From positions 310,001 to 374,000 of the forward strand of contig JAMPIT010000180.1 of NCBI GenBank assembly GCA_026261815.1: a stretch of DNA of 64,000 nt, given 5' to 3'. The DNA comes from Monarcha castaneiventris obscurior (Eukaryota > Chordata > Aves > Passeriformes > Monarchidae). The notes beneath the pieces are model-generated. The model saw only the letters and a program-made list of their open reading frames with translations. It was not told where the DNA came from and made no database searches. How positions within the stretch are numbered: position 1 is the stretch's first letter; each line of letters begins with the position of its first letter. The translations under genes and the position numbers were made by a program. This document shows, piece after piece, positions 6,825 to 63,544 of this stretch.

Positions 6825-6850
6825 AGTTGAGGCTGAGTTCACTGAGGTCA
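6825..6850 (+). promoter_or_regulatory. Isolated DR5/DR3 nuclear receptor half-site match
   Basis: AGTTGA-ggctg-AGTTCA (DR5) followed by ctg and AGGTCA (so AGTTCA-N3-AGGTCA, DR3). The surrounding sequence (6790-6835) is made of imperfect gctgagctgggctta-like repeats, so chance origin is plausible. Confidence 0.25.
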
Positions 6851-10652: not shown

Positions 10653-11172
10653 AAGCCACCGCTGCCTCCCGTCACGCGTCCGTCCTGGAAAAGAGACGGG
10701 AGGACGGCGCTGGGATGCGGCGCTCGGTGGGAAGAGGGCAGCCAGAGTTTAGGAGGCCACGGCCTGCGGATGGTTTCCTGCTGGGCGAAGGGACCCACGG
10801 GCTCCCAGAGCACCGTGTCCCACAACGTTTTTGCTTTTTCCTGGCGTTTTTGGGTGGAAAAGTGGCGCAAGCCCTCCACGGGTTGTTCCGTGCTTGCTCC
10901 TGTGGGATTTGCCACGGGTTCCGTACGCAGCTCATGGCAGGGAACAGAGCAGGAGCTGCTTCATCTCCCTCTTGTTCCCAGCTTTTCCATGTCCAGCCCG
11001 TGCTGGTGAGCGCTTCCCAGCGTTCCCATTGCTTCCCAGTGCTTCCATCACTCCCCAGCCTGAGGAGGGCGGGAGGAAGCGCCGCTAATCCTCATTAAAT
11101 GTATAAATTTATGGCCCCGTGGTGCTGCAATGTTTAATCAGGGCTCCGTGACTGTGCCGTGCTCCGGGTACA

Positions 11173-11189
11173 AGTTCAGTGCAAGGTGA
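11173..11189 (+). promoter_or_regulatory. DR5 retinoic acid response element match 1
   Basis: AGTTCA-gtgca-AGGTGA. The first half-site fits strict RGKTCA and the second fits relaxed RGKTSA. Confidence 0.55.
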
Positions 11190-11211
11190 ATCTTGGCTGA
11201 GATAATCTGGA

Positions 11212-11228
11212 AGTTCAGCCGGAGGTGA
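11212..11228 (+). promoter_or_regulatory. DR5 retinoic acid response element match 2
   Basis: AGTTCA-gccgg-AGGTGA. It has the same half-sites as match 1, starting 39 bp downstream, with an unrelated spacer. This argues for selection on half-sites rather than a simple recent duplication. Confidence 0.55.
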
Positions 11229-11258
11229 AGGCAGCGGCGGCTCCTCACAGCCCGCCCG

Positions 11259-11275
11259 GGGTGAGCAAGAGGTCA
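11259..11275 (+). promoter_or_regulatory. DR5 retinoic acid response element match 3
   Basis: GGGTGA-gcaag-AGGTCA, starting 47 bp after match 2. Here the second half-site is the strict consensus. Confidence 0.55.
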
Positions 11276-11280
11276 CCTCC

Positions 11281-11321
11281 TTTTTTTTTTTTTTCTTTTT
11301 CCTTTTTTTTTTTTTTTTAGC
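11281..11321. repeat. Poly-T run
   Basis: Two T runs separated by a few C, directly after the DR5 island. Confidence 0.95.
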
Positions 11322-12949
11322 CCCTTTTTTAACGTGTAAACACGAGAAAAATGCAACTTCGCAGAGGATTTGGCATCAGCTGAGCAGCAACAGGAAAGAG
11401 AAGCGTGGAGTGCTTTGGCCCCGTGGGGCTCGGGGAGGTGACGCCGGTGGTTTTTTTTGGGGTATCAAGAGAGGTTTGGTTCAAATGTCACGGTGGAAAG
11501 GAGGAACCCTCAGGATTTCTTGGCTCGCCCGTCCCTGCTCCCTGCTGCTGGTGGGATCCCTCGAAGGGAAAATGCCCCTGGCTGCGGGGTCTGGGTGTCC
11601 CAGGCCGGTGCTGGTGGCACTCTCCGGGCTCCGTCTGTCCCAGGACGTGGCTCGGTGTCACCTGCACCCTGCAGGCTCCGGGGTTTGCTGCTGATGGGCA
11701 GCGCTGACCCCTCCCGGCCCCAAAGCTCTTGGGCTGCTCCGATGATGAGCTGGGAATGCTTCCTCCAGGAAAAGTGGCATTCGAGTGATTTTTTTCCCTT
11801 TTTGGGATGATTTTTTTCCCCAGTTGGGATGATGCTGGAGGTGGTTTCCCATAGGTTAGTTTGGGCAACTTCTGATTTCTCCCCTCTGAAGCCCCTTTCC
11901 TGTGTGTGGAGGGGTTTTGGGCTTTTTTTGTGCTCGTGGTTGCTCTTCCCTGACTAAAGGATCGTTTGCCACTGAAATACTGGGATTTTCCACATTATTT
12001 CCTAATGTTTTCTTTGGGACCACTGATTTGGACGTGTGGGTCAGGCAGGGAAACCCAGGAGGCCGTGGACACCTGGAATGCAGCACTGGAAAAGGAATTC
12101 TGTATGATGAGGTACCCTGAGCACAGAGCCATCCTCTCCCAGCTGCGGAGCTTTTCCAAAATTCACCTTCTCCTCCCTGAAACACCTTCAAAAACACCTC
12201 CAAGGATAATTATCTACACCCTGAGCGCTTTCCAAGCATCACATCCTGAATTTCTCCCCTATAGCACTGGATCTGATCCTGGAGGATTTATCCAGCTCCA
12301 TCCTCGCTGGGTGCAGCTCCAGCAGAACCCGATCCGGAGGATGCTGCTACAGGAGACATCTTTGCCTTGGGAATGAATCCCTCTTTGTGGCGGTTCAATG
12401 GAAAAGCCAAGTGTTATTCAATAGCGGAATTCCCTGCGGAACGCTCTTCCGAGGCTCTTTCATTCCTCCTGGCTCCAGCCCAGTATTGTCCCCGTGTGTC
12501 ATCGGAGGGTCTGGAGGGTGGAAATCCGCCCATCTCCGGGCCCAGCCTTCCCTGCAAACTTGTGAACCTGCCCGGAGAATGGGATGAGTCCAAGGGATTA
12601 TTTTTAGGAGTGCAAATTGGCCACTAAACCCAGCAGCTCCGATTCCTTTTGTTCCCGTGGCCATTCATAAAATCCCCCTGTCCGGGTGTTATCGCTGGGA
12701 ACGACTGATTCCATCCCGAAACATTGAAATCTCAGGGGTTTTGCACCAAATCATTTTCAGGCCTTGTTTCTTTTATTTCCCGAGGGCTGTGCCATGGTGA
12801 GAGAAACTCGGGATTTCCCTAGAATTTAGCAGAGCTTTCCCTGCGGGCAAAGATCCAGTGGGTGACTAAATCCAGGCTGTGAGCGTGGCTTGGGGGGACT
12901 TTCCAGGGCTGTCACCCCACACGTGGTGATGCTGATCCTCAGCGTCCCC
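11322..12949 (+). other. EXOC6B intron, unique GC-rich sequence, nothing recognised
   Basis: No CR1 and no exon. Frames of 100-140 codons have no recognisable motif, no splice support and no family resemblance. Confidence 0.6.
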
Positions 12950-20022: not shown

Positions 20023-20135
20023 CTCTTGGATCTGTTCATCCAGTGGGATTGGTCGACGTATTTGGCCGACTATGGACAGCCCACGTGCAAGTACCTTCGT
20101 GTGAACCCCACCACAGCCCTCATCCTGCTGGAAAA
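20023..20135 (+). CDS. EXOC6B: EXOC6B penultimate coding exon (exocyst Sec15B C-terminal region)
   Basis: EXOC6B is one of two vertebrate Sec15 paralogues. Sec15 is a subunit of the octameric exocyst, which tethers secretory vesicles to the plasma membrane, and its C-terminal helical region binds Rab GTPases. The exon follows a pyrimidine-rich acceptor ending in CAG at 20022 and starts in frame with LLDLFIQWDW, STYLADYGQP. It encodes 37 whole codons and two bases of a lysine codon, and ends at a strong donor (gtgagtg) at 20136. From memory, the peptide matches human EXOC6B at nearly every position, with a few substitutions (for example N to T after GQP). It matches EXOC6B better than the paralogue EXOC6. 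The split AA|G codon joins exactly to the exon at 27074. Confidence is high because splice sites, phase and homology all agree. Confidence 0.96.
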
Positions 20136-26470: not shown

Positions 26471-26680
26471 TTGAAATTCACAACTCCAGACCTTCCCAGC
26501 CTCTCCCAAAGCTTCATCTCGTGCATGCGAGGCACCGTTTTAAATAAAACCCCTTAATTCTATGGATTCCGTGCTAATTTTTAAGTTTCCTCCTCAAATT
26601 CTATCATCACTGCAGAGGGTGACGTGGGGACGGAGAAATCCCTGTTTGGAAGGGGGAGGATTTAGGATTTCCTGCATTTG

Positions 26681-27130
26681 GGAATTAGGGAGAGACCCCA
26701 AAGTGGCATTGATTGGGATCGGAGAAGTTTAAAGCCTGAAAAATGCCCCAAAAATTGGTGTAGAGCTGTGAAATCCCATGTCCTCCTCTGTGAGCACTGG
26801 ACATTCCCAATCCCTGTTCCATAACCTGTTTGTGCTCCGTGCAGGATGCGGGACACCAGCAGGAAAAACAACGTTTTCACCCAATTCCAGAAAAAAGAGT
26901 GGGAATTAGGGAGAGATCCCAAAGTGGCATTGATTGGGATCGGAGTGGTTTAGAGCAAAAATGCTTAAAAAATTCCCCAAAAATTGATGTAGAGCTGTGA
27001 AATCCCATGTCCTCCTCACTGAGCACTGGACATTCCCAGTCCCTGTTCCATGACCTGTTTGTGCTCCGTGCAGGATGCGGGACACCAGCAGGAAAAACAA
27101 CGTTTTTGCCCAATTCCGGAAAAACGAGCG
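26681..27130 (+). repeat. Tandem duplication (~221-229 bp, two copies) covering the intron end and terminal exon of EXOC6B
   Basis: The first unit is about 26681-26901 and the second about 26902-27130. Both contain the sequence starting ggaattaggg, the segment gtagagctgtgaaatcccat, the run up to the acceptor, and the first part of the exon. The breakpoint lies inside the exon, so the proximal exon copy is cut after about 18 codons. Small insertions and deletions change the period from 221 bp at the unit start to 229 bp at the acceptor. Confidence 0.9.
26845..26953 (+). pseudogene. Partial tandem duplicate of the EXOC6B terminal exon (alternative terminal exon or relic)
   Basis: The 14 bases up to and including the CAG acceptor and the first ~50 exon bases are nearly identical to the real terminal exon at 27074. 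The copy reads MRDTSRKNNV then FTQFQKKE. After that it runs into the start of the second repeat unit and meets a stop at 26951-26953, giving a 35-residue C-terminus that ends GIGVV instead of the conserved SHHS end. The copies differ at about five bases in the shared exon stretch, so this is a real old duplication rather than a simple assembly repeat. If used as a last exon it would replace the conserved tail. If a weak donor (gtggga) at 26899 were used, its 54 bp would keep the reading frame into the real exon. No expression evidence is available here. Confidence 0.7.
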
Positions 27131-27200
27131 GGACAAGCAGAAGTTGATCGACACCGTGGCCAAGCAGCTGCGTGGCCTCATCAACAGCCACCACTCCTGA
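27074..27200 (+). CDS. EXOC6B: EXOC6B terminal coding exon with stop codon
   Basis: This exon completes the Sec15B C-terminus. The acceptor is CAG at 27071-27073. The first base completes the split lysine codon, then 41 residues follow, beginning MRDTSRKNNV, passing through FAQFRKNERD and ending LINSHHS, with TGA at 27198-27200. The human protein ends LISSHHS, so the length matches the family exactly. The segment is very basic and helix-like. About 229 bp upstream is a second, partial copy of this exon with its own acceptor (26845), so this is the distal member of a tandem pair. It is the functional copy, because only this one keeps the full family C-terminus. The 3' UTR begins at 27201. Confidence 0.96.
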
Positions 27201-37689: not shown

Positions 37690-39260
37690 GATTCCTTCCC
37701 AAAACCGGGATCCCACAGTGCCTGTGGCAGCTGGCACTGGAAAAATCTCCATCAGGATCCCATCCTCTCCTCCCCTCCCAACGCCCTCCCGCTTCCCTGG
37801 CACTTTTGATCCGCCCCGTCTGCCCGGGAGTGGGATGGGCGGGGGAGATTTGCATGCTGGAATTCCAACCAGGAAGTTCCCCGGCACGGGAGGGGACGAC
37901 GGATTCCTCCCTCGCTTTTGGGTTCGTTATGATTTTATTTGTTTTTCCGGTCATCTGGGGGACAGCCTTGGATGGTTTCCCCTTCCCAAAGCGCTGCTGG
38001 AAAGCAGGTGAATGTGAGGTGGGACATCCGTGACCCCGGAGTGACCCTGCCCTCATTCCCAGATGGATAAGCCGATGACTAAAGCACATCCTGGCCTTCC
38101 TGAGACACACCCAGTTGCTTGGCTCCCTCCTAAATATTATTTTCCAGCCTCTCTCTCCCCACCCTCTTGGGGAAATCGCTCCCGAGGAAAGCTGAGGGTG
38201 TTTGCTCGGGGGTGATGGACGAGGGATGCTCAGGGATACCCCAAAAATCATGGAAGAGGGAAGGTGTGAGCTGGGAATTGTCCAACCATCCCATTTAGTT
38301 GGTGCCAGTGATCCCAAATTTTGGGCTGCGGTGCTGGAAGGGCACGGAGGGGCTGGAGCCAGTCTGGAATTGGGCTGCTGAGAAACCAGAGGGGCCTGGG
38401 AAGGAAAATCCGAAAGTTTGCAGTTGTTTGGTTGAGGAAAACATTTTCCAACTTCCAAACGTTTCCCAGTCCATCACTAGACTCTGCAAGCAGGGAGGGG
38501 ATGGAATGGTCTCCGTGTTCACTGGGAATTGGCTGGAATTGGATCCAGAGAGGCTGGAATTGAGGAGGAGGGTGGGGATGGGGTGGGGGTGTTGGGGCTG
38601 CAGCATCTCCAAGGTTGGAGAACCGACGGGAGGGGACTGGGCTGGAGCAGGGCAGGAATGGGCTGGAAGCTCCTCCAAAATCCATCCAAAGGCATCCCAG
38701 TCCTGCTCAGCACGGGCAGGAGGCAGCTCAGATCCCTCAGTTTTGGGGTCAGGAGGTGGTGGGAGCTCCTGCCCGGTGGGAAGTCAGGATTCCAACCGGA
38801 TTGTCAAAACAAACCGGGAACAAGGGGGTTTAAATGCCCCTTTTGGGGTTTTCCCTCTAGTTGGATCAAACCCAGCTCTTCCCAAGAACCCCGTGCCTGG
38901 GAACAGCTCTTGAAGCATCTCTCATTCCCACCTCTACCCTAAGGTCTCTCCCAAGAGGAATTTTTCCTTCCCAAAAATCAGGAGCTGAGCAGTTTTCTGA
39001 GCCTCTCATGAGCCCTGAGGGTCCCTGACTGGGATTGGCTGTGAGGCCCTGCCAGTCTTACCTCAGGGACACGAGTGAGGGTCCTTCTGTCCCCCGTGAG
39101 GGGGTTCCAGCTGGACTCCGGCCAGGATTCAGCTCCCAGATTTTCCCACCTAAAGGTGGAGGTGCAATTCGGACACCTCGGTGGCCTGGGAGCCCACCTG
39201 GCCTCCAGCTGTTATTCCAGGAGGATGGAATTCTCCCAGAGGTGCTGAGTTCTTACACTC
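37690..39260 (+). other. Intergenic unique sequence, nothing recognised
   Basis: No CR1 piece or exon was recognised. Frames such as 281 codons on - (37613-38458) are composition-driven. Confidence 0.5.
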
Positions 39261-49979: not shown

Positions 49980-50045
49980 TTAAAAAAAAAAAAAAAAAAA
50001 AACACCAAAAAAACCCAAAACAAACCACAAAAAAAAAAAAACCAC
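49980..50045. repeat. A-rich tract with CCA/CAAA interruptions
   Basis: Poly-A of about 21 bases then acaccaaaaaaacccaaaac-like sequence. Confidence 0.9.
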
Positions 50046-50199
50046 CAGGAAAAAAACCTCAATTTCAGCATTTAACACCCCCACCACACCCCCCCAATCC
50101 AAAGGGATTTTTCCGTGCTTTTCCCACAGCCCCGAGTTTAACACCTGGGAAAAGAAAGTGGGAAGGAAATCCAAGGAAAAGAGAAAGAAAAGGGCCCCC

Positions 50200-50385
50200 C
50201 AAGGGCGGCTTTTTCCCGATCTGCATCCGACAAAAGCCTTTGGTTTTCTGTCATTCTTTTCATTTCCTTGCTGGCTCCCCCAATTGTCAAAGCCCTCAAG
50301 AAAATGCACTTTAGCTCTTTGTCCCCAAATGTAATTTGATAAACTCCGGGCAGAAACATTCGGGTTTCGGAGGCTTTTCAGAAAA
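50200..50385 (+). promoter_or_regulatory. Candidate intergenic regulatory island
   Basis: About 185 bp of unique, balanced sequence (caccaattgtcaaag-like words, acaaaagcctttggttttct) squeezed between A-rich and purine-rich low-complexity tracts. Such an intact island between degenerate tracts suggests constraint. Confidence 0.42.
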
Positions 50386-51035
50386 AAAAAAAAAAAAAAT
50401 AAAAAAAAAAAGGGAGAAAAAGAGGTGGGGGAAGAAGGGGGAAAAAAGGGAGAAATAAGAGGGGGGGAAAAGGGGAAAAAAAGAGGGGAAAAAAGGGGAA
50501 AATAAGGGGGAAAAAAGGGGAAAATAGAGGGGGGAAAATGAGAGAAAATGGGGAAAAAGGAAGAAAAATGAGGGAGGGAAGAAGGAAAAAAAAAGAAGGG
50601 GAAAATGATAAAATAATGAAGGGAAAAGAAGATAAAGGATAAAAAGAAGAAGCAAAAGAAGGGAGAGGTGAGGGGGAAATAAGAAAAAAGATGAAGGAGA
50701 AAAAGAAGGGAGAAAATGAAGGAGAAATAAGGAAAAAAGGAAAAAAAGAGAAAAGGAGGAAAAGAAGGGAGAAAATGAGGGTGGAAAAGAAGCAAGAAAA
50801 GGGGAAATAAGGAAAAAAGGAATAAAGAAAAATAAGGAAAAGGAGGGACAAAATAAGGGGGAAAAGAAAGGGAAAATAATAATAGAAGATAAAGATGGAA
50901 AAGAAGATGGGAAAGAAGAAGGAAAAGAAGAGGGAGAAAAGGAGGAAAAGAAGAGGGAAAAAAGAAGCAAAAGAAGAGGGAAAAAAGAAGGAAAAGAAGA
51001 GGAAAAAAAGGGAAAAGGAAAGGAAAAAGAGGGAA
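50385..51035. repeat. Polypurine tract (GGGGAAAA/GGAAAAG), about 650 bp
   Basis: Almost pure A/G on the + strand, with occasional ATA. The opposite strand is pyrimidine. Frames of 200-389 codons, F/S/P-rich on the - strand, are artefacts. Confidence 0.93.
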
Positions 51036-51184
51036 AACCCCCAGGAGCTGCTCCTGCAGGGGGTAAAAGTGGGGGAGCCCCTGCTGAAGAATCCCTTGGA
51101 GCATTTGGAATTTCGGAAGCGGGATTTTAGGAGCGGGGTGATGGAGCCGAGGCAGGACCGGGCCCGGAGGCTCCAGGGGGGAAG

Positions 51185-51345
51185 CTTGACGTTGTCATCA
51201 TCCCTAAATCCTTCGGAATCCTCATTTTCCAGCGGCACTTTCCCCCCTGTGGGCGGGGACCACGGCGGCTCCCACGCTATAAAACGCTCCGAGTTTTCCC
51301 GGGAGTGGGAAGCGGCCGCCGGGGCCAACTTGGACTTGGAGGTTG
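51185..51345 (+). promoter_or_regulatory. Candidate intergenic regulatory island with TATA-like word
   Basis: Unique sequence directly after the purine tract. It includes ctataaaacgctccgag near 51278, which could be a minor promoter. No transcript can be inferred. Confidence 0.28.
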
Positions 51346-51774
51346 GGTGAGTGGCGAAAATAATCCGGATTTTTCTTCCCAGGGATTTTGTTCCAGGTGG
51401 GGTTTGGAGAAGAGGGAGCTGCGGCCTCCAATGGCTCCCAAAATCCCGGAATCTCCGTGCCCCATCCTGCGGGGTTTCTGCTGCCCAAGGGGGTGGTGAT
51501 GGTTTGTTCATCCAGAGGGTGGAAAAAGCAGTGATGACAATTCCCAAATTTCAGTGCAGGGCTGGAAAGGCGCCGGGTTGGAAAAATATTTTGGGAAGCA
51601 AAGCCCCAAACCAGGAACGAGGGCCTATTCCCAGCTGGGGGAAGTGGTGGAATTCTGCTCCCGGTGGGAGAAGCGGCTCCCGAGATCCTGGCAGGGTTTG
51701 GGGTGAGGGGAAAAGAGCAAAATGGAGGAAGGAGTAAAAAAAATTAATTGGGATGTTTTGGGGATAAGGAAAAG

Positions 51775-51945
51775 AAATTGGGATCTGGCTGCAAAAAATT
51801 CCAGTTGGGGGCTTGGATGCAAAAAAAATTCCAGCTGGAAGTTTGGCTGCAAAAAAAATTCAGGTTGAAAGTTTGGATGCAAAAATTCCAGATGAGGGCT
51901 TGGATGAAAAAAAAAATTCCAGTTGGAGATTTGGGAGCAAAAATC
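51775..51945 (+). repeat. ~30-bp tandem repeat, about six copies
   Basis: Units of type gggcttggatgcaaaaaaaa plus ttccagttg, with varied A-run length. Confidence 0.87.
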
Positions 51946-51999
51946 CAATTAAATTGCAGGATTAGTTGTCAAACTGAAATATTTTTGGATATAAATCCC

Positions 52000-52085
52000 T
52001 GGAGTTGTGGAAGTTGTCCTTGCCCATGGCACGGGCTTGGAATGGGATATTTAAGGTCACTTCCAATGTGGAATTCCCTGATTTT
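52000..52085 (+). mobile_element. CR1 3' tail, sense, diverged
   Basis: tgtggaagttgtccttgccc, then gatatttaaggtcacttcca and an eroded end. Confidence 0.72.
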
Positions 52086-52234
52086 CATGTCAGGATTGGG
52101 GTGGGTTTTCCCCCCCTCCTCATTATGGGCCTGGAAGGGGCAGGGATTCCATTAAAAGGGGGCTGGGATTCCTCTGGAATGCAGAATTCCATGGATTCTG
52201 CCATCCTGAGCTTCACCTGTGCAGGCGGATGAGG

Positions 52235-52460
52235 GCGGGAAAGGAGCTCGTGGTGCATCCCAATTATTAAATCAGCCATAAAAGTGTGATCAGTGTTAAT
52301 TAATATTAATTCATGGGAATAAACCCCGCAATCAGACTGAAAAAAAACGGGATCAACGTTCCTAATGGATCACTAGCAGGGAATCCCGGCTGGAAAATTA
52401 AAGGTATTTGGATGAATTGGGGTTGTTTTTAATTAAATATTTTCAATTAAAAATGAGATG
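52235..52460 (+). promoter_or_regulatory. Candidate intergenic regulatory island, AT-rich
   Basis: Unique, with cccaattattaaatcagcca, then gttaattaatattaattcat. Homeobox-like words are dense. Conservation is not tested. Confidence 0.35.
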
Positions 52461-52464
52461 AGGT

Positions 52465-53910
52465 AAAAAAAAAAACAGTCATTGAGTGAGACAGGAAAGT
52501 TGAAAATTCCACCTGTGCATTCCAAGTTCTTCCAAATTCGGGAATATTTTGCCTGGATAAGAAAAGGGGGATCAGGGTATTAAAAAAAAAAAAAGGAAGG
52601 GATGTGAGGAAGCCTCGGACAGGGAGAAAAACAAACGTTGGTTTTAGAAGGGATTTTTCCTTTGGGATTAAAAAAACAAACAAACAAAAAAAATAGGAAT
52701 TCAAATGAAATATTACCTGGGAGCGCCTCTGGAATTTTCTCAGGGAATCCAATCCCTCCGTGCGGCCGAGGGGGTGCAGCTGCCTCTGCCAGGGAGCGGA
52801 AAACAGGGAAGGAAAATTCCCACAGGGAATTCCTGCGTGCAGGGAGCAACCCCAGCACCTCTCTGGGGGTGACCCGGGAAGGCAGAGCCCCCACACGTTC
52901 CCTGGGAATGAGGATATCCCGGGAATGCTGCTCCCGGAGGAACCTCCCGGACTCTCTGCTGCTCTCTCCAGCTGGAATTGAACAGCACTGGAATTTTTAG
53001 GAGCTGCAGGGAGAGAGCGTTGCCCACTCCGGGCACGGCAAATCCCAGGGAATTTGGGAAGCAAAGGGAATTTTGGAGCTGTAGGGCCCAGGCAGAGGGG
53101 CAGCTTTTCCTGTGGGAATGTTGATCCCTCCTGGTGCTGAAATTCCCAGTTTTTCCCAAGGTAGGAATTCAGGATCCCGTTTGAGTTGCAAAATTGGACT
53201 CTGGGGATCCAACCCCGTGGGAAAAGCGGGATTGAAGCCCAGGATTTGGGAACTGGCTGAGCCCCAAACCCACTGCAGCATCCTGGGGGTGGGGGATGAG
53301 ATCCCGGCATTCCCATTCCCGGTGGGAATTCCCGTGGTGCCCTCGCCCCTCTCCCTTCGGGAATTGTCGCTGCCCCGGTGCTTTCCCCACCCCATTTGTG
53401 ATTTCACGGCCCCTTGGCTTTGTTTGTGGACGGTGACAGAATTCCCCAGGCTCCATGAAAAGTTGGGAATGCCGTGGCTGCATCCCACTGACCTGGCCTG
53501 AGCTCCACCCCCGACCTTGGGAAATCCTGGATTTACCTCCAGAGGGTGGGAATCTCCTCCAAGAGAAACCCTTAAAAACCCCACAAATATTTTTTTAGGC
53601 TCTTCCTCCTTCCCCTTGAATTTCCAGCAGTGGGAAAAGAAACACGAAACATTTCCATAAAATTCTTATGGAATTCTGTGCTGGTGGCTCCCTCCTGCCC
53701 CTTTCCCTGCCCTTCAGGGAGGCTTTTCCACACATTTGGGAAGAAGTGGGAGATTTTGGGATGGGAATTCTGCTGCTTTGGGGCAGCCAAGAGCATCCCA
53801 GGGGTGGGGATTTCCATGGAAAAGGAAGGAGGAGGGAAGGGCCTCCTGGCTGGGAATTCCAGGGGGTGTTTTCCATGGCAGGCACTGGGCTCAGGGATGG
53901 TTTGGGGAGG
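52465..53910 (+). other. Intergenic unique sequence, nothing recognised
   Basis: A short unique patch at 53385-53460 (atttgtgatttcacggcccc) may be conserved. The rest shows no exon or repeat. Confidence 0.5.
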
Positions 53911-53914
53911 TATT

Positions 53915-54550
53915 TAGGGAAGGATTTTTGGGAAGGAGCTTCCGGAAGGTGTGAGGTGCTTTGAGCAGGATTTTTGGGAAGGTGCTTTGGGAAGGGGCTT
54001 CAGGAAGCTTTGGGAAGGTATTTTGGGAAAGTTTTTGGGGAAGGCAATTTTGGGAAAGTTTTTGGGGAAGGCAATTTTGGGAAGGTGTGAGGTGCCCGGA
54101 GCAGGTGTTTTGGGAAGATCTTTGGGGAAGATGCTTTGGGAAGGGGCTTTGGGGTGGTGTTTTGGGAAAATCCTTTTGGGAGTCACTTTGGGCAAGAATT
54201 TCGGGAAAATGCTTTGGGAAGGGGCTTCAGGAAGGGGATTTGGGAAGGGGCTTCAGGAAGGGGATTTGGGAAGGGGCTTCAGGAAGATGCCTCGGGAAGG
54301 GGTTTTGGGAAGCTCTTTAGGGAAGGGGACTTGGGACAGCCCGAGGCGCTTTGGGAAGGGGCTTTGGGAGCCACTTTGGGGCAAATATTTTGGGAAGGGG
54401 CCTCTGGAAAGGTATTTAGGGCAGGATTTTTTGGGATGGTGCTTCGGGAAGGGGTTTTTTTTTTGGGATGGGATGAGGCGCTTTGGGGGCCAGAGACTGA
54501 GGAAGAATCCTTGGGATGGTGCTTTGGGATGGAGTTTGGAGAAGACGCTT
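53915..54550 (+). repeat. Degenerate G-rich minisatellite (tttgggaaggggcttcagga-like)
   Basis: Units of 12-30 bp built on TTTGGGAAGG with GGGCTTCAGGA and GCAATTTT variants. The frames through it (GKGLQEGDLG type) are artefacts. Confidence 0.88.
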
Positions 54551-56394: not shown

Positions 56395-58200
56395 GATTTT
56401 TGCTGGGGGAAAGGGTTAAGGGTTAAATATTGGGGAGGGGGATGATTGGAAGAGGGAATCCTCTCAAGGGAGGGGGGGTTGGGGGTTAAATATCGGGGGG
56501 TTGGTGGGAGGGAGAGCCGTGAAGGGTTAAATATTGGGGGGGAAATCATTATGGGGGGAAATATCAGGGATTAAACATTGGGGGGAAATGGCTGGGGGTT
56601 AAATTTGGGGGGACCGGGATTAAATATTGGGGGGGGTTTGTGGCGAGGGGGGAGTGATCGAGGGTTAAGTATTGGGGGGGATAAACGAGAATTAAATCTT
56701 GGGGGGGATATCAAGGATTAAATATTGGGGAAATAATCGAGGATTAAATATCGGGGGGGTTGTGACCCAGGGAAACCAATCACGGATCAAAAATTCAAAA
56801 ATCAAAAATTGGGGGGGACAATGGAGGATTAAATATTGGGGCGGTTTTGGAGAGGGGAAACAATCGTGGATCAGAAACTGGGGGGACAATCAAGGACTGA
56901 ATATCAGGGAGGGGGCGAGAGGAAACAATCACGGATTGAATATTGGGGGGACAATCGAGGATTAAATTTGGGGGGGTTTTGGAGAGGGGAAACAATCAGG
57001 GATCAAACATTGGGGGGACACTCGAGGATTAAATTTGGGGGGGTTGTAGCGAGGGGAAAACAATCACGGATTGAATATTGGGGGGATAATCGAGGATTAA
57101 ATACTGGGGAGGTTGTAGCGAGGGGAAACAATCAGGGATCAGAAATTGGGGGAGACACTCGAGGATTAAATATCGGGAGGGGTTTGGTGAGGGGAAACAA
57201 TCATGTATCAAAAATTGGGGGGACACTCGAGGATTAAATTTTGGGGGGGTTGTGGCGAGGGGAAAACGATGAAGGATCAGAAATTGGGGGACAATCGAGG
57301 ATTAAATATTGGGGGGGGGGGGGGTTGTAGCCAGGGGAAAACGATGAAGGATCAGAAATTGGGGGGACACTCGAGTATTAAATATTGGGGGGAGTTCTGT
57401 CGAGGGGAAACAATCAGGGATCAGAAATTGGGGGGACACTCGAGGATTAAATATGGGGGGGTTTTGGAGAGGGGAAACAATCACGGATTGAACATTGGGG
57501 GACAATCGAGGATTAAATATTGGGGGGGGGGTGTAGCCAGGGTAAAATGATCACGGATCAGAAACTGGGGGGGACAAGGATTAAATATCGGGGGGGGGTT
57601 GTGGTGAGGAGAAAATGATCACGGATTGAACATTGGGGGGGACACTCGAGGATTAAATTTGGGGGGGTTTTGGAGAGGGGAAACAATCAGGGATCAAACA
57701 TTGGGGGGACAACCGAGGATTAAATTTTGGGGGGGGGGGGGGGTTTGGAGAGGAGAAACAATCACGGATCAGAAATCGGGGGGGGACAATTGACGATTAA
57801 ATACCGGGGGGAGTTCTGTCGAGGGGAAACAATCAGGGATCAAAAATTGGGGGGACAATCGAGGATTAAATTTGGGGGGGTTTTGGAGAGGGGAAACAAT
57901 CAGGGATCAGAAATTGGGGGCGCACTCGAGTATTAAATATTGGGGGGGGGGGTTGGAGAGAAGAAACAATCACGGATCAGAAATTGGGGGGACACTCGAG
58001 GATTAGATTTGGGGGGGTTGTGGTGAGGGGAAACAATCGCGGATCAGAAATCGGGGGGGGGACAATTGACGATTAAATACCGGGGGGGGGGGGTTCTCTC
58101 GAGGTGAAACAATCACGGATCAGAAATCGGGGGGGAGACAATTGATGATTAAATACCGGGGGGGGGGTTCTCTCGAGGTGAAACCACCAGGGATCAGAAA
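56395..58200 (+). repeat. G-rich ~68-bp minisatellite upstream of CYP26B1, about 21 copies
   Basis: Units carry aaacaatcacggatcagaaa, then a G run, (a/c)aatcgaggattaaatat and a second G run plus ggagaggg. Measured spacing of the caatc marker is 65, 67, 68, 68 and 69 bp from 56861. The array is ordered from about 56760 and looser from 56395. G runs of 5 to 17 make it a dense G-quadruplex region. It ends within 130 bp of the GAGCC array. Confidence 0.95.
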
Positions 58201-58325
58201 TCGGGGCGCACTCCAGGGTCAAACACCGGGGGTGCCTCTCCTGGGGGATCCCTCGGGGGGCAGCGCCCCGAGGAGCGGCCCCGGGGGGGGCCGGGGAAGG
58301 GTTAACCCGGGCCGGGGGCGGCGGG

Positions 58326-58703: not shown

Positions 58704-60202
<1,499 letters not shown>

Positions 60203-60727: not shown

Positions 60728-61261
60728 CCGCGGCGGGGGAAACCCGCCGAGGTAATCGGGAGATTAACCCGGGATTAACCTCGCTCAACGCCCAACGAGC
60801 GGCGGGCGGAGCGGGATCCCCCCCGCGCCGCGGCTGCCAAAAAACCAAAAAAAAAATAAAATAAAAAAAAATCGGGGGAAAAGGGGGGAAAATCCCCGAG
60901 CAGGGGAGAGGCAGGAGGCGGCTCGGGGTGGAAGGGGGGAGGTTCCCGGCTCTGCTGGGAGCTCCGTGCCGGGCTCGGGGCGCCCCGGGGCTCGCAGCAT
61001 CCCGGGAGGGAACCCCCGAGGCGAAGCAGCGCCAGGGTTTCCCCCTCTCTCCTCCCAGCCGAAATAAATAAATAAATAAATTAATTATAATGATCAAAAG
61101 GAGGATGCTCCCGCCCTTCACTGCCGCAGCCGGCCGCGGGGCAGGACAGCCCCGGTCCCGGCGGGGACAGCGGCGGAGTCCCCCGGTGTCCCCCCACGGC
61201 CGCCACCGCCGGGGAAGCCCCGGCACCGCGGCCCCGCTCCGCCGCCCGGCGCCGAAGGGGT

Positions 61262-61605
61262 TAACGGCACGCTCTCAATAGGGCTTTATTTTTTAAAGAA
61301 ATTTATCAGATTTTTACAGGGGGACCAGAAAAGGGTTCTCGCTTTTCCACAGGCTCCGTCCAAACAGAGTCCAGGGCTAAAAATACAAAAAATTTTGTAT
61401 AAATTGGACTCGGCTCGCAACTCGCGCCGCATAAAGGTGCTCTTTGTGCTGCCCTGGAAATGGTGTACAAATAACTCTTTATTAATGCCACAAAAAGGAC
61501 TTTTAATTATATTTACGCAGATCAAGAAACAGGGTCACCTGAACATCTGAACCTCACAACCGCGCTTTTGTTTCAAAATAAACACCCGCGCTCCCGGCCC
61601 GGCGG
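61262..61605 (+). promoter_or_regulatory. Candidate conserved noncoding island in CYP26B1 intron 1 (first)
   Basis: Unique AT-rich sequence between GC-rich flanks, with no repeat structure, T/A-rich words such as ttattttttaaag and aattatatttacg, and the half-site cluster at 61532-61553. It looks like a conserved element by texture only; no alignment was made. Confidence 0.45.
61532..61553 (-). promoter_or_regulatory. Candidate nuclear receptor half-site cluster in CYP26B1 intron 1
   Basis: On the - strand the order is GGTTCA-ga-TGTTCA-gg-TGACCC. This gives a DR2 with one mismatch (GGTTCA-N2-TGTTCA) overlapping an inverted repeat with a 2-base spacer. RAR/RXR can bind DR2. It lies in a unique island inside the retinoic-acid-inducible gene itself. 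Confidence 0.4.

Positions 61606-62132: not shown

Positions 62133-63544
<1,412 letters not shown>

What the first reader, a model, noticed from the sequence alone, without database searches (positions are those of the whole stretch)
11085..11280. Triple DR5 retinoic acid response element cluster inside an EXOC6B intron, likely acting on CYP26B1
Three matches to RGKTSA-N5-RGKTSA on one strand within 103 bp (11173-11189, 11212-11228, 11259-11275), each with one strict and one relaxed half-site. The first two share both half-sites but have different spacers. One such match is expected about 0.5 times in 64 kb on both strands, so a cluster of three is very unlikely by chance. It lies in a repeat-free island. 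DR5 is the known preferred RAR/RXR site and CYP26 genes are known to be induced by retinoic acid. CYP26B1 is on the same strand about 48.6 kb downstream with no other gene recognised between except the host EXOC6B, so this could be a distal retinoic-acid sensor that drives the enzyme that degrades retinoic acid.
Basis: partly seen in the sequence, partly recalled or inferred. Interest (0 to 1): 0.88.

Follow-up and report, generated by a model that had tools for sequence, protein, structure and literature searches.

The report
Candidate retinoic-acid switch upstream of CYP26B1
Three same-direction repeats that look like binding sites for the retinoic acid receptor sit together inside a gene next to CYP26B1, the gene for a retinoic-acid-destroying enzyme; the cluster is well beyond chance in this sequence, but whether it is conserved, bound or active is not known.

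Summary
Three same-strand RGKTSA-N5-RGKTSA repeats lie at 11173-11189, 11212-11228 and 11259-11275. No shuffle (0 of 2267) and no random motif of equal information content (0 of 6000) clustered this way; of spacings 0-20 only 5 clusters. A matrix from published conserved DR5 elements ranks the sites 5th, 4th and 1st of 127,968 positions, or 7th, 6th and 2nd without the most similar published element. Each site is one mismatch from strict consensus, so moderate.

The cluster is 8.7 kb upstream of the penultimate EXOC6B coding exon and 48.6 kb upstream of the CYP26B1 start codon, same strand.

Best reading: a multi-site retinoic acid response enhancer, most likely feeding back on CYP26B1. Binding, activity and target are inferred. 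Conservation was not testable: no vertebrate comparator, and the own-genome search did not complete. The nearest published DR5 to sites 1 and 2 is a mouse element conserved to frog (chr6:84976840, PMC7259794), by recalled coordinates in Exoc6b; probably not the same element. New member of a known kind.

The parts
11173..11189 (+). DR5 site 1: AGTTCA GTGCA AGGTGA
   Evidence: one mismatch to RGKTCA x2, in the 3' half-site
11212..11228 (+). DR5 site 2: AGTTCA GCCGG AGGTGA; 14 of 17 bases as in the published mouse chr6:84976840 element
11259..11275 (+). DR5 site 3: GGGTGA GCAAG AGGTCA; the only one of the three that fits the amphioxus signature confirmed by gel shift in PMC5247814
11478..11490 (+). 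DR1-like GGTTCA A ATGTCA, one mismatch, about 200 bp after site 3; possible extra receptor site (noticed after the fact)
   Evidence: one of only two DR1 with at most one mismatch in the window
11085..11280 (.). Proposed enhancer core holding the DR5 trio; also one AGATAA at 11200 and one TTTATGG at 11108
20023..20135 (+). Penultimate coding exon of EXOC6B (first exon recognised downstream of the cluster)
27074..27200 (+). Last coding exon of EXOC6B with stop codon
59912..60115 (+). CYP26B1 coding exon 1 (start codon at 59912), proposed target gene
62241..62465 (+). CYP26B1 exon 2; best solved-structure match is CYP120 (E 5.4e-13)

Best explanation
A multi-site retinoic acid response element: RAR/RXR dimers occupy up to three DR5 sites within about 100 bp of a late EXOC6B intron, hold the enhancer closed without ligand and activate it when retinoic acid rises. 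The most likely target is CYP26B1, 48.6 kb downstream on the same strand, giving negative feedback on retinoic acid; several moderate sites in place of one strong site would make the response depend on higher receptor and ligand levels. Shown: the sites, their strand, spacing, excess over chance, and the gene order. Inferred: receptor binding, ligand response, cooperativity, target.
For: Cluster beyond chance by shuffles and by random motifs in the real sequence; only spacing 5 is enriched, the spacing of the top motif in zebrafish RAR peaks (39% of peaks; PMC8608873 passage). A half-site matrix from 11 distinct published conserved DR5 elements ranks the sites 1, 4 and 5 of 127,968, and the 200-bp bin starting at 11101 has the highest summed affinity in the window with and without the most similar training element; 0 of 600 shuffles had even two such matrix hits within 103 bp on one strand. 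Half-sites AGGTGA (3') and GGGTGA (5') each occur in one of 12 conserved DR5 of PMC7259794 Table 2. Half-sites agree while spacer and following bases differ between sites 1 and 2. Paired precedent: two conserved DR5 37 bp apart at mouse Dhrs3. CYP26B1 is RA-induced in human cells, mouse stem cells and zebrafish; chicken keeps EXOC6B and CYP26B1 close together on chromosome 4.
Against: No site is a strict DR5; sites 1 and 2 carry AGGTGA as the 3' half-site and fail the amphioxus gel-shift signature. Without the Zfp638-assigned element in training, sites 1 and 2 score 12.4 bits and fall behind the single sites at 6825, 38031, 14590 and 28645, and the cluster's summed affinity is only about 17% above that of the single site at 6825. 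No conservation, binding or expression data for this locus. PMC5247814 describes RA control of CYP26B1 as apparently indirect. The published mouse element of this chromosome region was assigned to Zfp638, not Cyp26b1.
Confidence: 0.5

Rival explanations
1. A real RAR/RXR-bound element whose main target is not CYP26B1: it acts on EXOC6B itself, on an unannotated non-coding RNA, or on a more distant gene of the domain.
For: The cluster lies inside EXOC6B; the published mouse element in this chromosome region was assigned to Zfp638 (PMC7259794); the chicken region is reported to hold several lncRNAs (PMC13064311 passage).
Against: CYP26B1 is a known RA-induced gene. No passage that I read reports EXOC6B as RA-induced, but I made no search for that as such.
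Confidence: 0.15
2. A chance or species-specific set of weak sites in GC-rich intron sequence with no receptor occupancy.
Against: 0 of 2267 shuffles and 0 of 6000 alternative motifs; excess limited to spacing 5.
Confidence: 0.25
3. The sites are part of an interspersed repeat or lineage-specific insertion spread through this genome.
For: The surrounding window is rich in tandem arrays; the own-genome search could not be run (none answered).
Against: No second copy in 64 kb (best off-target match 24 bp, E 0.023); no tandem array over the sites.
Confidence: 0.06
4. The AGGTG cores serve a CACCT-binding repressor of the ZEB type or another factor, and the DR5 spacing is incidental.
For: AGGTG at 11184 and 11223 and CACCT at 11274. 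The ZEB preference for paired CACCT is recalled, not tested.
Against: Does not explain a second half-site at exactly 5 bp in all three sites; no CAGGTG or CACCTG in 11001-11500.
Confidence: 0.04

Closest known systems
Mouse chr6:84976840-84976856 DR5 RARE, GGTTCA GCCAA AGGTGA, marked conserved to rodent, human, bird, reptile and frog, in an RA-regulated H3K27ac or H3K27me3 peak (PMC7259794 Table 2; section 11 read in full)
   Same: Same DR5 form with RGTTCA first and AGGTGA second; 14 of 17 bases as site 2, 13 of 17 as site 1; these two are the only places in the window with 4 or fewer mismatches to it. By recalled mm10 coordinates it lies in Exoc6b, next to Cyp26b1.
   Different: A single site in the table, assigned to Zfp638 by the authors. 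By recalled coordinates it is in the 5' part of Exoc6b, whereas the trio is 16 kb from the EXOC6B stop codon, so it is probably a different element. Spacer identity is only 3 of 5 (site 2) and 2 of 5 (site 1).
Cyp26a1 upstream RAREs (three and a half sites within 2.2 kb, acting together; PMC7151129 passage)
   Same: Several RARE sites tied to a CYP26 gene, feedback logic.
   Different: Promoter-proximal, with a canonical AGTTCA-N5-AGTTCA site (PMC5247814 Table 1 passage); here distal, intronic, relaxed.
Dhrs3 paired DR5 elements (mouse chr4:145034810 and 145034847; PMC7259794 Table 2)
   Same: Two DR5 at 37 bp start to start near an RA-feedback gene; here 39 and 47 bp.
   Different: Two sites, marked conserved to frog and in RA-regulated chromatin; none of that is shown here.
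skap1 intron 4 RAR enhancer, proposed to act on hoxb (PMC8608873 passage)
   Same: DR5-like element in an intron of a neighbour gene, proposed to act on the adjacent RA-target locus.
   Different: Conserved fish to human and tested in transgenic zebrafish.

Membership tests
DR5 retinoic acid response element (RAR/RXR) | Two direct half-sites spaced 5 bp, relaxed consensus RGKTSA | tested here: met
   3 of 3 sites; 10 of 12 published conserved DR5 also meet it
DR5 retinoic acid response element (RAR/RXR) | Strict consensus RGKTCA in both half-sites (the classical form, but not required: see evidence) | tested here: not met
   0 of 3 sites; one mismatch each. 4 of 12 published conserved DR5 in PMC7259794 Table 2 also fail it, so it does not exclude membership.
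DR5 retinoic acid response element (RAR/RXR) | Fits the amphioxus gel-shift DR5 signature of PMC5247814 | tested here: inconclusive
   1 of 3 sites (site 3); only 5 of 12 published conserved DR5 fit, so the signature is too narrow to decide
DR5 retinoic acid response element (RAR/RXR) | Binding by RAR/RXR | not testable with these tools
   No binding data for this species
DR5 retinoic acid response element (RAR/RXR) | RA-dependent activity | not testable with these tools
   Needs reporter or deletion
Conserved non-coding enhancer | Sequence constraint across birds or vertebrates | not testable with these tools
   The collections open to me hold microbes and viruses by their descriptions; exact-match scans of viral (2 patterns) and prokaryote (1 pattern) contigs found nothing
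CYP26B1 feedback element | Same-strand CYP26B1 downstream with EXOC6B as host | tested here: met
   48,637 bp from the end of site 3 to the start codon
CYP26B1 feedback element | Contact with or effect on CYP26B1 | not testable with these tools
   Needs chromatin contact data or deletion

The most novel reading that the evidence does not exclude
The trio is the missing direct RA sensor of CYP26B1 in birds: a distal, cooperative three-site element in EXOC6B that makes RA degradation switch on steeply. A further step: the mouse DR5 at chr6:84976840, assigned in print to Zfp638 and marked conserved to frog, is a sister element of the same EXOC6B regulatory block and really serves Cyp26b1.
Probability: 0.2. 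Interest if true: 0.7.

Novelty: new member of a known kind. Interest (0 to 1): 0.45.

Why it matters
How retinoic acid directly controls CYP26B1 is unsettled in the passages read: one paper calls it apparently indirect (PMC5247814), another notes no consensus RARE in the promoter and unvalidated in silico DR5 sites (PMC7151129). CYP26B1 helps set RA landscapes that shape feather vanes (PMC5263876 passage) and is held to restrain meiosis in the fetal testis, in a model now disputed (PMC11893106 passage). A compact distal element would give a single interval to delete and a clear prediction, and would suggest looking again at the target of a published conserved mouse RARE.

Tried and rejected
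Simple tandem duplication of a 39-bp unit: not supported, 6 of 22 bases identical after the motif. Copy of an interspersed repeat in the window: none. RNA family: none in 64 kb at gathering thresholds. Generic half-site density: spacings other than 5 do not cluster. Strict DR5: none in the trio. Orthology of the trio with the mouse chr6:84976840 element: not established, judged unlikely from recalled coordinates. As a control, four other published RAREs searched with up to 4 mismatches gave 0, 1, 3 and 1 places in the window, none of them in the trio. Searching print for the exact 17-mers, both strands: 0 papers. EXOC6 with CYP26 and microsynteny: 0 papers. Six phrases naming a Cyp26b1 enhancer or locus: 3 papers listed, all for 'cyp26b1 locus', none opened. 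Whole-frame Pfam scans for exons were uninformative: they listed only three families with E between 0.1 and 0.43, below cut-off (Med8, CCD97-like, DUF1003), and missed the CYP26B1 exons already seen. A first splice-site scan was too strict and gave no candidate. Solved-structure searches with CYP26B1 exon 1 and the EXOC6B tail found nothing.

Full report
What is there. The window holds 133 + and 108 - RGKTSA half-sites; 6 of the + half-sites fall in this 103 bp, all in DR5 pairs, with one further - half-site overlapping the end, and among 115-bp windows this is the densest place on one strand and on both. Each pair has one mismatch to RGKTCA twice.

Chance. Dinucleotide shuffles of the window give 0.73 matches on average and never three on one strand within 103 bp (0 of 2267). 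Local shuffles give none either (0 of 20000 twice, 0 of 4000). Because a reader free to choose motifs could find some cluster, I also scanned the real, tandem-repeat-masked window with 6000 random half-site pairs of the same information content and the same spacer length; none clustered three times and 31 clustered twice, though 847 of the 6000 had three or more sites overall. For RGKTSA itself, of spacings 0 to 20 only spacing 5 clusters. I take the cluster as real and specific to the DR5 arrangement. Sites 1 and 2 look alike only within the motif (6 of 22 following bases identical).

Strength. I built a half-site matrix from the 12 conserved DR5 elements printed in PMC7259794 Table 2 (11 distinct; section read). 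Sites 3, 2 and 1 rank 1, 4 and 5 of 127,968 positions, with scores of 15.0-16.2 against 13.6-20.2 for the published elements. With the most similar training element removed, sites 1 and 2 fall to 12.4 bits and ranks 7 and 6, site 3 is 2nd, and the 200-bp bin over the cluster still has the highest summed affinity, but only about 17% above that of the single site at 6825. So the case rests on number and arrangement rather than on strong single sites. Only site 3 fits the signature of amphioxus DR5 elements confirmed by gel shift (PMC5247814 passage), but 7 of 12 published conserved elements fail that signature too.

Setting. The EXOC6B tail: LLDLFIQWDWSTYLADYGQPTCKYLRVNPTTALILLEK from 20023-20135 and MRDTSRKNNVFAQFRKNERDKQKLIDTVAKQLRGLINSHHS-stop from 27074-27200. 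The first came top of a splice-site scan (with a longer 5' end), the second from a search with recalled peptide motifs; they join in frame across AG and GT sites. Pfam gives Sec15_C at E 1.4e-5, below that model's curated cut-off of 28.3 bits (25.1). The name EXOC6B rather than EXOC6 rests on recall and on its neighbour. CYP26B1 exon 1 starts at 59912 and exon 2 at 62241; exon 2 matches CYP120 at E 5.4e-13 in solved structures, and the two joined give p450 at E 0.0026, below cut-off. The B1 assignment is from recall of the protein plus the EXOC6B neighbour. No EXOC6B exon was recognised upstream of 20023 in the window, so the exact intron number is unknown. No gene in between was recognised, but the scans were weak: plus strand only, 50000-54000 not scanned, and CYP26B1 itself was missed.

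Mechanism. RAR/RXR bound to RAREs, with co-repressors released and transactivators recruited on ligand binding, is the established mode (PMC7151129 passage). Several moderate sites could give a steeper response; that is inference. CYP26B1 is the likeliest target because it is RA-induced in human squamous carcinoma cells and listed with RAR-gamma peaks (PMC12774775; its passages differ on whether the induction needs RAR-gamma), in mouse embryonic stem cells (PMC3905905) and in zebrafish (PMC8608873), where RA-opened chromatin with RAR sites and DR5 motifs is reported at cyp26a1/b1. PMC7151129 cites induction by RA beads in chick embryos; the passage shown starts mid-sentence and its subject appears to be Cyp26b1. 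Against this, PMC5247814 calls RA control of CYP26B1 apparently indirect, and PMC7151129 knows no consensus RARE in its promoter. A distal element would reconcile these, but that is an inference.

The nearest published element. PMC7259794 lists a DR5, GGTTCA GCCAA AGGTGA, at mouse chr6:84976840-84976856, marked conserved to rodent, human, bird, reptile and frog, in an RA-regulated histone-mark peak, assigned to Zfp638. Searched against the window with up to 4 mismatches, it matches only site 2 (3 mismatches) and site 1 (4 mismatches). 9 of 60 permuted queries also found a match with 3 or fewer mismatches, and shared half-sites explain most of the likeness, so this alone does not show homology. 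By mm10 coordinates that I recall and could not check, the element lies inside Exoc6b, in its 5' part, while the trio is 16 kb from the EXOC6B stop codon. I judge them separate elements of one neighbourhood, with orthology possible but unlikely.

What could not be done. Exact scans of viral contigs (two patterns) and prokaryote genomes (one pattern) found nothing. The own-genome search was asked nine times and never answered.

Verdict. It is a strong candidate of a well-known kind, not a new kind.

Noticed in passing
26679-27133: A 229-bp tandem duplication covers the end of the last EXOC6B intron and the first part of the last exon; the upstream copy, exon-like from 26845, has altered residues and then runs into other sequence, so a second acceptor and a partial exon sit before the true last exon at 27074.
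   Followed up: partly
38031-38047: The only strict DR5 in the window, GGGTCA CTCCG GGGTCA on the - strand, between EXOC6B and CYP26B1; 17 of 100 shuffles have at least one.
   Followed up: partly
61540-61553: DR2-like GGTTCA GA TGTTCA on the - strand in CYP26B1 intron 1, in a stretch with a high CpG ratio (windows from 61201 to 61501 are among the top 40 of 636).
   Followed up: no
11478-11490: DR1-like GGTTCA A ATGTCA about 200 bp after the DR5 trio, one of two such sites in the window.
   Followed up: partly
56400-58220: Long degenerate array of short G-rich units with GATTAAAT-like words just upstream of the CYP26B1 5' region, read by eye.
   Followed up: no
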